From Synechococcus sp. SP2 MAG (GTDB taxonomy: Bacteria > Cyanobacteriota > Cyanobacteriia > PCC-6307 > Cyanobiaceae), in contig JAVBIX010000054.1 in the NCBI GenBank assembly GCA_030756895.1, forward strand, positions 1-64,000: DNA of 64,000 nt. The letters are read 5' to 3'. Below, piece after piece: positions 36,133 to 40,665 of this stretch. How positions within the stretch are numbered: position 1 is the first letter of the stretch; every line of letters begins with the position of its first letter. The notes under the pieces are model-generated. The model worked only from the letters and a program-made list of their open reading frames with translations. It did no database searches and was not told where the DNA came from. The translations under genes and the position numbers were made by a program.

Positions 36133-37362
36133 TCAGTGCTGATAATCAAGCTGTTGTTTTTCAATCAAACGTGCTAAAACTTGTTGGCACGTCCAGCGCA
36201 GTGGTCTCCAAAAAGCAGATTCAGAAAGTTCGTAGATTAGCTCCATTTGATCGTAGAGTTCAAGCTCAAGACAAGCCCAAGCTGCAGCTATTCTCGACTT
36301 TGTATATTGAGGAGTAGTTTCCGAAAGAGCAGATCGCACCAAATCACTTTTTTGGTGAAATTTACGCAAACCAATAATACATGTAAGGTAATAGTGTGTG
36401 ACGTAATCAGACCAAAGTCTTTCTTGCATACTATCAACAATTTCAAGACAACTCTTAGGATCGATAGTCATTAGGCTTAATGCCGCCCCATATTGACGCG
36501 CTTCGTCCCTATGACTGAGATTCCTCTCTATTTCGGCAGGGTCCATATCACAATGCCATTCAGCTTTGAAATTTAGATATTGAGGATTGTCAGTCAAAAG
36601 TTGCTCTAAAAGCGAGTGGTTCTTTGAAGTAAAAATTGAGTTATTAACATCAACGATATCAAAGAAACTTTTTGCCCTTAGGGACATAGAGACTGGTGCA
36701 CGCACCAAATCTGGAAGTCTGCATTCATCACCAGCATCACCTAAATCAATCACAGCCGAACGTCTTTTACCAGCCACTAAATCAGCAAGTTGTGGGATCA
36801 AAGGATCTAAGAGATCAACTCTTCCATATATCCTGGCCTGATACGCGCGTGCTGCACCAGAAACCAAGACACTCTCATGAGCACAAAGTTCATAGATTAC
36901 AGATTGAGATTTCGAATTCCTAATGGTTAATCTGGTGTGAGCTTGAATGACTGCACGGATCTGCGTAACTTCACCATTCAATAGTGATAAGAGTAAATCA
37001 ATATCATCAGGGAGTGGCTCCCAACCAATGCGGACCAAAGAAGTAATTGCATTAATGACAGCCTCGGTATCAGTACAGTTCAGAACAGAAACTAAAGTTG
37101 GTATTGCTCGCACATTTTTTCTCCTGCCTAGTGCCTCAATAGATTTTCGGCGCGTTATCCTGTCATACAATTCATCAACGGAAAGATTCTCGACAGCATG
37201 AAGAAGCAACTCAAATGATTCCTCAGTAGTACTCAACCCAAGCCTGGTCGCTGCAAAATAACGATCTGCTGGTCTCTGAACATTTAAGGTATTCTCCAAC
37301 AAGAGCTTTGAAGCATCACTCTCACTCATTCCATGAACAAGAACATCAAATCTTTCAGCCAT
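36133..37362 (-). CDS. HEAT-repeat phycobilin lyase (CpeY/MpeY/MpeZ/MpeW family)
   Basis: 409 aa; SIEALGRRKNVRAIPTLVSVLNCTDTEAVINAITSLVRIGW and further HEAT-like repeats; adjacent tandem AraC regulators support an MpeZ or MpeW identity. Confidence 0.75.
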   Translation of the reverse strand: MAERFDVLVHGMSESDASKLLLENTLNVQRPADRYFAATRLGLSTTEESFELLLHAVENLSVDELYDRITRRKSIEALGRRKNVRAIPTLVSVLNCTDTEAVINAITSLVRIGWEPLPDDIDLLLSLLNGEVTQIRAVIQAHTRLTIRNSKSQSVIYELCAHESVLVSGAARAYQARIYGRVDLLDPLIPQLADLVAGKRRSAVIDLGDAGDECRLPDLVRAPVSMSLRAKSFFDIVDVNNSIFTSKNHSLLEQLLTDNPQYLNFKAEWHCDMDPAEIERNLSHRDEARQYGAALSLMTIDPKSCLEIVDSMQERLWSDYVTHYYLTCIIGLRKFHQKSDLVRSALSETTPQYTKSRIAAAWACLELELYDQMELIYELSESAFWRPLRWTCQQVLARLIEKQQLDYQH

Positions 37363-37598
37363 AAGAATAAGATTAATAAAAAATTCTACTTAAAGAATCA
37401 ATTGCAAACGGCAAAAATACAATTCATATGCATCATGTCAGCAGACTGAATACATGCAAGAATGATAAAAGCATTACACAACTGCAGCATTTCAGATTTC
37501 ACAGACCAGCGCAATATGCAGCAAAAGGCAAGGTGCCCTTCCAAGAAAGTTCATGATCGGCCTCAACAAACTGACTATCGAAACTATATTAAAAATAA

Positions 37599-37620
37599 TG
37601 AGAAGTCAAAAAACTTCTCA
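37599..37620 (-). terminator. Probable terminator downstream of the RHH-like ORF
   Basis: 8-bp perfect stem TGAGAAGT/ACTTCTCA with T-rich tail on the minus strand. Confidence 0.5.
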
Positions 37621-37664
37621 AAACAAGAGCCGAGAATATTAACTTAGTTTAGTAATCGAATAAG

Positions 37665-38030: not shown

Positions 38031-38987
38031 TTACAAAAGCTTGGAGCGCTTAAGCGTTTGGCTTGGTAGCTCTCCAAAATTAGTGAAGTACCTTCTTGAA
38101 AATCTACCTTGATGTTTAAATCCAAAACGTATCGCTATTTCACGGATAGTATTATTGTCAAAATTTGATGTCGAAGAATGATAAATCATTGATCTTCTTG
38201 CTTCTTCAAGTCTTACCTGCGTCATCATTTCTATGATTCCCATGCCAAAATAATCTTGACATGTTCTGTATAGAGAAGCTTGGCCTACATTCAATTGCTG
38301 ACAAACATCCAACAATGACATTGGTGTGCTCATTTTGTCAGGATCATGAGAAAGAGTAACAATCTCGCCAAGCAACCTCTGATTCTTCACCTGTTTCTTT
38401 TTATACAACTTATGACTACCTTCTTCAAGACAGATAGTAATTAAGTCGTAGTATTTAGATGGATTTAGAATTCCTCTAACAAGATCCCTACGGGCCAGTC
38501 TACGTAATTGAGAAAAAGCTTCATGATCAATTATCAAGCCAATAGATTCACTTAAATTAGCAATTGCTTGACTTGCTTTACATTCTTGAAGCTTATTGAG
38601 TAGTGTTTTCTTGTCCAACATACACGCAGTTGAAGAGCATGATTCTGAATATTTTCCCCATGAGTCGCCTGGATTTGAATGAAAAGTATTAAAACCTCCA
38701 AGACTATTATCATTCATATCAAAACCTTCGCAATATCCAAAAGGATAATTTGCTTTACGCGTTGATGTAATCCAATTAAAATCGACGGACCAACTTGTGC
38801 CCCATCCTTCGTATAAAAGAGGCTTGGATGCACTGATCTCAGCTATAGCTATTCCAGAAGATTTTTGATGCGCCATAGAATAACTACCCTCACCACTTTC
38901 CAGTTGTGTAATTTTTGTGACTTGACCATATTCCTGAAGAGTCTCAGACAATTGCAATGGATCTGTATAGGAAAATTTGATGTTCAT
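38031..38987 (-). CDS. fciB: AraC-family transcriptional regulator (FciB-like, tentative)
   Basis: C-terminal AraC HTH: SLLDVCQQLNVGQASLYRTCQDYFGMGIIEMMTQVRLEEARRSMI...TIREIAIRFGFKHQGRFSRRYFTNFGELPSQTL; tandem with a second AraC gene and a bilin lyase. Confidence 0.7.
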   Translation of the reverse strand: MNIKFSYTDPLQLSETLQEYGQVTKITQLESGEGSYSMAHQKSSGIAIAEISASKPLLYEGWGTSWSVDFNWITSTRKANYPFGYCEGFDMNDNSLGGFNTFHSNPGDSWGKYSESCSSTACMLDKKTLLNKLQECKASQAIANLSESIGLIIDHEAFSQLRRLARRDLVRGILNPSKYYDLITICLEEGSHKLYKKKQVKNQRLLGEIVTLSHDPDKMSTPMSLLDVCQQLNVGQASLYRTCQDYFGMGIIEMMTQVRLEEARRSMIYHSSTSNFDNNTIREIAIRFGFKHQGRFSRRYFTNFGELPSQTLKRSKLL

Positions 38988-40018
38988 GACATACTTCCTC
39001 TACGCAAATCAGAAACAAGAACACTCATCTTGCTTGACTTGTCAATTGTGTCTTCTGGACTCTCTAGAAAAGTCTTAAAGTAAAGACGTTGAAAAGAATT
39101 CCAATTTTTAAAACCATAATACAAAGCATTATGCTGCTTAGTAAATTGCTTCAAACCACGGGGGACATGTGGGTTTAGATATGACTTTTTGACTTGTTCT
39201 AGACGTATACTTTTAATTAGATCAAGAATATTCATATTAAAGGTCGATCTACAGACCTGGCCTACAGATTCTTGCTCAGAGTTCAAGTATTTAGTAATTT
39301 CTCCTATCGTCAAAGGTGGCAAGCCAGCTCTGTCTTCATGTAATAACTTAACAAGGTCTTCTATTAGTTCAGTTGATTCAGATCTCTCGGTAATGTGATT
39401 CTGTGGCTCGCAAGAATCCTCTAGAGTTGCAATAGCTAAATCATAAAACCCACCAGCTGTAGTTATTCCCTTAGCAAAATGCTTTTCAAACAATTTCTTC
39501 AGCTGAATACTAGAAGTACTGTTCGAATCAATACCAATGCATTCTTCAATCCTTGCGTATGCATTGTAAGCATTCATCTCATCAATTTTTTCTTTCAATA
39601 TTTTCCACTTCAGGCTCATGCAGCAGAGGATAGTGTTTGCACCAACGATATCCCATGTATTGCCACCAGTTTTATTTAAGCGATTAAATCCTGCTATGCT
39701 TAAATCTTTCATCTTATGACCACTAATGATAGTGTTGCCGCTTGGCTTTTCCCCTAGATTATTTATCCAGCAAAATGCAATTGAATTTTGATTGGCTTCT
39801 TCTTCATAAAGTAGTGTTTGATTAGACTTGAAAATTTCAAGATGAACATTATTGATAGGCGCACAGATTGAACTCGTTTGCAATTCACCTTTGCTTAATT
39901 GGGTGATATTGCAAGAAAAATTAGACGTCGAGTAATATTCATTATAGTGATTCTTGCAATACGTTTCCATTCCAAGCAAGTTACTGAAAACATATTCTTT
40001 TGCCTTCCTTGCCTTCAT
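38984..40018 (-). CDS. fciA: AraC-family transcriptional regulator (FciA-like, tentative)
   Basis: C-terminal AraC HTH: LTIGEITKYLNSEQESVGQVCRSTFNMNILDLIKSIRLEQVKKSYL...HNALYYGFKNWNSFQRLYFKTFLESPEDTI; 4-bp overlap with the next gene. Confidence 0.7.
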   Translation of the reverse strand: MKARKAKEYVFSNLLGMETYCKNHYNEYYSTSNFSCNITQLSKGELQTSSICAPINNVHLEIFKSNQTLLYEEEANQNSIAFCWINNLGEKPSGNTIISGHKMKDLSIAGFNRLNKTGGNTWDIVGANTILCCMSLKWKILKEKIDEMNAYNAYARIEECIGIDSNSTSSIQLKKLFEKHFAKGITTAGGFYDLAIATLEDSCEPQNHITERSESTELIEDLVKLLHEDRAGLPPLTIGEITKYLNSEQESVGQVCRSTFNMNILDLIKSIRLEQVKKSYLNPHVPRGLKQFTKQHNALYYGFKNWNSFQRLYFKTFLESPEDTIDKSSKMSVLVSDLRRGSMS

Positions 40019-40341
40019 CTGACTAATGCCTTGGTGTGATTTTTCAAAAAATCAAGCAAGTAGAAATCATAATCTCTATTCGCTTTTTACTGAGAGATTG
40101 TTAGGTTCTATGACATTTGAGCTTTAAACCAGTGGGCTCTTGAACGCATAGAGCTCGCGCAAACAATCCCAATGCAATAATTATTTACAAGCCGTCACGG
40201 CAAAGCCTCTTGCAAGATTCACAAAACCGAAAATTCATATTTGCAATTTCTGCATTGTACTCAATATTATTTGCTGTAAGTATGATTTTACCTCAATTCT
40301 AAGTTGATGCAGGGTATAAATCGAGTAGAGATCATTATGCT

Positions 40342-40665
40342 ATGTCTAAGTCTCAATTACATGCATTCATTGATCGAGCACGTAGTGACGAGCAATTTCG
40401 TTCTCGGCTTTCATCAATGAATCCAAAACAGATCGTAGAATTTGCCGCAGAGAGTGGCTTTAATTTTTCAGATGAAATCAAAGGGAGATTTATCAATCGA
40501 TGGAAAGGAGTATATTTTTGCCCCCAAGCTATTGAAGTTGGAATCCTATGCCCTGGATTAGTACCAGCTGGCTATAAAAATCTTCTTCACTATTCTCAAT
40601 CTACGTGCAGTTCTTCAAACCTTAAGGAAGAAGAGCATGATTTCAGAGCCGGCGGTGTTTATTAG
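40342..40665 (+). CDS. Nif11-like domain small protein, divergent from the AraC pair
   Basis: MSKSQLHAFIDRARSDEQFRSRLSSMNPKQIVEFAAESGFNFSDEIKGRF matches the Nif11-type N-terminal pattern. Confidence 0.65.
   Translation: MSKSQLHAFIDRARSDEQFRSRLSSMNPKQIVEFAAESGFNFSDEIKGRFINRWKGVYFCPQAIEVGILCPGLVPAGYKNLLHYSQSTCSSSNLKEEEHDFRAGGVY

What the first reader, a model, noticed from the sequence alone, without database searches (positions are those of the whole stretch)
36133..40665. Likely type IV chromatic acclimation (CA4) genomic island between rpmA and truB
Seen: an AT-rich block holding a HEAT-repeat bilin lyase-like gene, two tandem AraC-family regulators overlapping by 4 bp, and a divergent small gene. 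Known: marine Synechococcus CA4 islands encode tandem AraC-type regulators FciA and FciB with the phycoerythrin lyases MpeZ (CA4-A) or MpeW (CA4-B). Inference: this is such an island, here flanked by kaiABC-rplU-rpmA on one side and a methyltransferase plus truB on the other, with no phycobilisome rod genes visible in this window.
Basis: partly seen in the sequence, partly recalled or inferred. Interest (0 to 1): 0.85.

Follow-up and report, generated by a model that had tools for sequence, protein, structure and literature searches.

The report
Complete CA4-A light-colour island, clade I-like
This is a complete copy of a known five-gene island that lets some marine Synechococcus switch the colour of light they harvest between blue and green; it sits where its close relatives also carry it, so it is a good but ordinary example.

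Summary
Window 36133-40665 is a complete type IV chromatic acclimation island of the CA4-A kind: unk10 (+), then fciA, fciB, fciC and mpeZ (all -). In a tree of bilin lyases the lyase falls inside the MpeZ clade, away from MpeW, MpeQ, MpeY and CpeY. It carries valine at the published isomerase-determining position (MpeQ V319, here V321); plain lyases have glycine there. FciA and FciB group with the CA4-A orthologues. The island is a discrete insertion: 22 congeners have rpmA-methyltransferase-truB without it, five close relatives have the whole island at this site, and two have damaged versions. On another contig the same genome has a PEI/PEII phycobilisome region with mpeY (glycine type), mpeU, MpeA Cys83 and no MpeW or MpeQ. 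I therefore predict a working blue/green acclimater (pigment type 3dA); no expression or light measurement exists for this strain. The island, gene order, enzymes and regulators are already published, so this is a new member of a known kind, of low interest. A possible shared promoter motif is only a weak lead.

The parts
36133..37362 (-). mpeZ: phycoerythrobilin lyase-isomerase (409 aa); Tyr320-Val321 align with Tyr318-Val319 of MpeQ
   Evidence: Inside the MpeZ clade in an ML tree; V at the isomerase position in 33/33 MpeZ and MpeQ sequences, G in 17/17 MpeY, MpeW and CpeY; 51% identical to MpeY in the same genome
37363..37664 (-). intergenic region upstream of mpeZ (302 bp)
   Evidence: weak candidate repeat about 130 bp upstream of the mpeZ start
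37665..37832 (-). fciC: 55-aa ribbon-helix-helix-like putative regulator, reported only from CA4-A islands
   Evidence: 80-98% identical in related islands; RHH match below Pfam cut-off; 55-67 aa fits PMC3877281
38031..38987 (-). fciB: AraC-family regulator (318 aa)
   Evidence: HTH_18 E 7.9e-17; CA4-A branch of the FciB clade
38984..40018 (-). fciA: AraC-family regulator (344 aa), first gene of the island's main strand
   Evidence: Weak HTH_18 match; CA4-A branch of the FciA clade, 97% identical to single-cell genome AG-686-F08
40019..40341 (.). divergent promoter region between fciA and unk10 (323 bp)
   Evidence: Intergenic length 312-333 bp in the 14 CA4-A islands compared
40342..40665 (+). 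unk10: 107-aa Nif11-domain protein of unknown role
   Evidence: Nif11 E 7.5e-11; published range 107-118 aa
35329..35598 (+). rpmA: conserved left neighbour, not part of the island
   Evidence: Found in 32/32 congeners
40980..41843 (-). methyltransferase: conserved right neighbour, not part of the island
   Evidence: Next to rpmA in 22 congeners without the island at this site

Best explanation
A complete CA4-A island in a marine Synechococcus related to the published clade I strains. By analogy with RS9916 (inferred, not measured here), FciA and FciB relay the blue-versus-green light signal and raise mpeZ expression in blue light. MpeZ then attaches phycoerythrobilin to Cys83 of the PEII alpha subunit (MpeA) while isomerising it to blue-absorbing phycourobilin. 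In green light MpeY, encoded in the phycobilisome region, attaches unisomerised phycoerythrobilin at the same cysteine. Shown here: gene content and order, orthology, the isomerase residue, the paired MpeY with the lyase residue, the MpeA Cys83 substrate, mpeU, purifying selection, and the insertion between rpmA and the methyltransferase-truB pair. Inferred: light-dependent expression and the phenotype (pigment type 3dA).
For: Gene order unk10/fciA/fciB/fciC/mpeZ is the published CA4-A order and matches genome G005, whose length of 2,664,873 bp is that of RS9916 from memory. Lyase tree: MpeZ clade. Y318/V319 test: V in all MpeZ and MpeQ, G in all MpeY, MpeW and CpeY; the own MpeY has G (mechanism as summarised in PMC9705338). 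FciA/FciB tree. MpeY and MpeZ acting at MpeA Cys83 in green and blue light in RS9916: PMC7948978. Own genome: cpeBA, mpeBA, mpeY, cpeY, cpeZ, mpeU and an mpeV/cpeF-type gene on contig C2; MpeA Cys75, 83 and 140 present; CpeB-141 is Leu. Only three lyases of this family in the genome: MpeZ, MpeY and CpeY. dN/dS 0.03-0.11. Empty sites and shared site in relatives.
Against: Complete islands do not guarantee the phenotype: MVIR-18-1 has a complete CA4-A island but cannot acclimate, which Humily et al. link to absence of mpeU. mpeU here is assigned by position next to cpeZ and 86% identity to its G001 counterpart, not by a functional test. No expression or spectral data exist for this genome.
Confidence: 0.94

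Rival explanations
1. A CA4-B island whose lyase is MpeW, a plain phycoerythrobilin lyase used in green light.
For: It also has tandem fciA/fciB and unk10.
Against: MpeW sequences form a separate clade at 35-38% identity and carry G, not V, at the isomerase position. fciC is present. unk10 lies upstream of fciA. The lyase is on the same strand as fciAB. The island is outside the phycobilisome region. FciA/FciB fall on the CA4-A side.
Confidence: 0.01
2. A complete but silent CA4-A island in a strain fixed in the green-light state (pigment type 3aA, as in MVIR-18-1).
For: Such strains exist in the same lineage: WH8016 and MVIR-18-1. G026, which fits MVIR-18-1, has an intact mpeZ at the same site.
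Against: G026 lacks mpeU and has His at CpeB-141; this genome has mpeU and Leu at CpeB-141, as does G012, which fits PROS-9-1. All island genes are intact and under purifying selection.
Confidence: 0.12
3. Unrelated AraC regulators next to a stray bilin lyase, not a CA4 island.
For: AraC-type genes are common in these genomes; HTH similarity alone gives 20-30% identity matches.
Against: Full-length orthology at 59-97% identity to FciA/FciB of other CA4-A islands, constant gene order in CA4-A lineages, and orthologous fciC and unk10.
Confidence: 0.01

Closest known systems
CA4-A island of clade I marine Synechococcus (CC9311/WH8020 type)
   Same: Same five genes, order, strands and rpmA/methyltransferase-truB site as G001, whose 2,606,748 bp is the length of CC9311 from memory; 87% identity for MpeZ, 91% for FciA, 81% for FciB.
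   Different: Sequence divergence only. CpeB-141 is Leu here and His in G001.
CA4-A island of RS9916 (functionally characterised MpeZ, FciA, FciB)
   Same: Same genes, order and strands; MpeZ 64%, FciA 74%, FciB 60%, fciC 84% identical to G005.
   Different: Different genomic site. RS9916 is reported to have unk14 and flanking psbA copies; the window has neither next to the island.
CA4-B island (A15-62 type: MpeW, with MpeQ in the phycobilisome region)
   Same: fciA, fciB and unk10 (50-59% identical) with a lyase acting at MpeA Cys83.
   Different: MpeW instead of MpeZ and on the opposite strand, no fciC, unk10 downstream, located inside the phycobilisome region, MpeQ instead of MpeY.

Membership tests
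CA4-A island | Lyase gene orthologous to mpeZ at the 3' end of the island | tested here: met
   MpeZ clade; isomerase valine; position
CA4-A island | Tandem fciA and fciB of the CA4-A branch | tested here: met
   ML tree
CA4-A island | fciC (55-67 aa, ribbon-helix-helix) between fciB and mpeZ, same strand | tested here: met
   37665-37832, 55 aa, 80-98% identical to other islands' fciC; RHH match sub-threshold
CA4-A island | unk10 (107-118 aa, Nif11) at the 5' end on the opposite strand | tested here: met
   40342-40665, 107 aa, Nif11 E 7.5e-11
CA4-A island | Located outside the main phycobilisome rod region, with clade-specific context | tested here: met
   Contig C50 between rpmA and the methyltransferase; rod genes on C2
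CA4-A strain (pigment type 3dA) | MpeY (plain lyase), not MpeQ, in the phycobilisome region; MpeA with Cys83 | tested here: met
   MpeY clade with G at position 319; MpeA Cys83
CA4-A strain (pigment type 3dA) | mpeU present | tested here: met
   C2:118358-119263, next to cpeZ, 86% identical to G001; absent from G026. Assignment by position and identity
CA4-A strain (pigment type 3dA) | mpeV rather than cpeF | tested here: inconclusive
   One mpeV/cpeF-type gene at C2:114445-115437, 87% identical to G012, 59% to G001, 54% to G026; no tree was built for this subfamily
CA4-A strain (pigment type 3dA) | mpeZ expressed more in blue than in green light; variable 495/545 nm excitation ratio | not testable with these tools
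   Needs cultures
CA4-B island | mpeW on the strand opposite to fciAB, no fciC, between mpeU and cpeZ | tested here: not met

The most novel reading that the evidence does not exclude
A degenerate repeat (about GCACAA-nn-GCA) upstream of mpeZ and in the fciA-unk10 region of CA4-A islands is the operator bound by FciA and/or FciB, so one motif would tie together regulation of the whole island.
Probability: 0.15. Interest if true: 0.4.

Novelty: new member of a known kind. Interest (0 to 1): 0.15.

Why it matters
It adds a further complete CA4-A island, in a genome that also keeps mpeU and CpeB Leu-141, so the strain should acclimate. The lineage holds intact islands, an island without mpeZ and a decayed remnant at one site, which makes it a natural series for asking how and why acclimation is lost. 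The island itself was already described and characterised.

Tried and rejected
(1) Shared operator motif. In single genomes, similarity between the mpeZ and fciA upstream regions did not exceed shuffles, except in G009 (0/100). Joint motif search exceeded shuffles (79.2 against 65.5 +/- 3.9 with one genome per lineage), but shuffles ignore relatedness, either region alone did not clearly exceed them, and train-on-one, test-on-the-other results depended on width (0/300 at best, 227/300 at worst). Kept as a weak lead only. (2) Phage carriage: no MpeZ or FciA relative in 50,697 phage records. (3) Methyltransferase as an island gene: rejected, it is in the empty site. (5) Papers naming the clades of UW105, UW140, AG-686-F08 and AG-683-C23: none found. 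(6) A paper naming the rpmA site of the CA4-A island: none found by full text.

Full report
Observation. The lyase is 36133-37362 (-), the two AraC-type genes are 38031-38987 and 38984-40018 (-) with a 4-bp overlap, and the divergent gene is 40342-40665 (+). The block is 35-43% GC against about 50-60% in the flanking housekeeping genes. Pfam gives HEAT repeats, AraC-type HTH domains (weak in the upstream protein) and a Nif11 domain for the small gene. A fifth gene was missed: 55 aa at 37665-37832 (-), with a sub-threshold ribbon-helix-helix match and 80-98% identity to the same-placed gene of related islands.

Which island type. Humily et al. 2013 (PMC3877281) define CA4-A as unk10 on the reverse strand, then fciA, fciB, fciC and mpeZ in one direction, located outside the phycobilisome region. 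CA4-B has mpeW on the opposite strand, no fciC, unk10 downstream, and always lies between mpeU and cpeZ. The window shows the CA4-A layout in every respect. In an ML tree of 50 lyases the window protein lies within the MpeZ clade, nested among the relatives that share its rpmA site. It is separate from the MpeQ clade (which contains the solved bilin lyase-isomerase 7mc4, identical over 397 residues to the G265 protein), and from MpeY, MpeW and CpeY. I take 7mc4 to be A15-62 MpeQ from memory and from PMC9705338; the PDB table only says 'Bilin Lyase-Isomerase'. The branch that unites all MpeZ has moderate support (82/100), but identity (61-94% to MpeZ, 52-55% to MpeQ-like, 50% to MpeY, 35-38% to MpeW) and the residues below agree.

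Isomerase residue. PMC9705338 summarises the MpeQ mechanism of Kumarapperuma et al. 2022: Tyr318 activates the bilin, and Val319 forces isomerisation by steric conflict, which is absent in the plain lyase MpeW. In my alignment all 33 MpeZ and MpeQ sequences have Tyr-Val here, and all 17 MpeY, MpeW and CpeY sequences have Tyr-Gly. The window protein has Tyr320-Val321; MpeY of the same genome has Tyr-Gly. This predicts a lyase-isomerase paired with a plain lyase, which is the CA4-A logic.

Regulators. FciA and FciB form two well-supported clades, and other AraC proteins of the family fall outside. Within each, the CA4-A and CA4-B sequences separate, and both window proteins are on the CA4-A side, closest to single-cell genome AG-686-F08, then G012 and G026. 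No FciA or MpeZ relative was found in phage records.

Insertion site. In 22 of the congeners read at rpmA, rpmA is followed directly by the methyltransferase and truB, with no island. In G017 only about 200 bp separate rpmA from the part matching the methyltransferase, against about 5.4 kb in the window. Five relatives (G001, G007, G012, G016, G026) carry mpeZ and the island at the same site. G006 has it without mpeZ and with a stop in fciA, which fits WH8016 as published. G023 keeps only broken fci fragments (L110). UW105 and UW140 carry the island elsewhere and have an empty site here. Context conserved within a clade but differing between clades is what Humily et al. reported. I could not see their figure, so I cannot confirm that the rpmA-truB site itself is printed there.

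The rest of the genome. The rod region lies on contig C2 and holds cpeBA, mpeBA, mpeY, cpeY, cpeZ, a gene next to cpeZ that is 86% identical to its G001 counterpart and absent from G026 (assigned mpeU), and an mpeV/cpeF-type gene. MpeA has Cys75, Cys83 and Cys140. CpeB-141 is Leu, as in G012, where G001 and G026 have His; PMC9705338 reports Leu for PROS-9-1 and His for CC9311 and WH8020. Only three lyases of the MpeZ/CpeY kind are present, so no MpeW or MpeQ. Island genes are under purifying selection (dN/dS 0.03-0.11). Pigment type 3dA is therefore the prediction; the explanation proposed for the failure of MVIR-18-1, absence of mpeU, does not apply here.

Names of comparison genomes. G001, G005, G055 and G259 match in length (2,606,748; 2,664,873; 2,224,914; 2,234,828 bp) what I recall for CC9311, RS9916, RCC307 and CC9902. 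That is memory, not a tool result. The tree grouping of G055 with G005 agrees with the published RCC307-RS9916 transfer. G012 and G026 fit PROS-9-1 and MVIR-18-1 by features only. 'Clade I-like' rests on the shared island, site and genes with these genomes; no 16S or petB typing was done.

Verdict. A complete, probably functional CA4-A island at its lineage's usual site. Known kind, known mechanism. The promoter-motif analysis gave a weak lead only.

Noticed in passing
L110 (G023:C1:2246000-2264000), 9136-10162; also L022 and L075: Decayed CA4-A remnant (broken fciC, fciB and fciA; no mpeZ or unk10) between rpmA and the methyltransferase in a complete 2.88 Mb congener: a natural loss at the same site.
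   Followed up: partly
L147 (G029:C9, contig of 89,590 bp): mpeZ, fciC and unk10 without fciA/fciB, as known for BIOS-E4-1.
   Followed up: partly
L149 (G173:C1:2122000-2132000): unk10, fciA, fciB and fciC but no mpeZ in this stretch, and no MpeZ-clade hit in the genome (best lyase 48% identity): a CA4-A island without its lyase outside the window's genus.
   Followed up: partly
L148 (G017:C14:43000-49000): mpeZ (61% identity, long branch) with unk10 but no fci genes, at a different site; the same genome has an empty rpmA-methyltransferase site.
   Followed up: no
L008 (1,868-bp contig in the WH 5701 assembly) and L005 (contig in an 'Aliivibrio' MAG): FciA identical to that of G118 in a WH 5701 contig, and a clade I-like fciAB in a Vibrionaceae MAG: probably contamination or misbinning, not transfer.
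   Followed up: no
G000:C2:114445-115437: The mpeV/cpeF-type lyase is 87% identical to G012 but only 59% to G001 and 54% to G026, although most neighbouring phycobilisome genes are 80-99% identical: a possible allele swap that goes with CpeB-141 Leu.
   Followed up: partly
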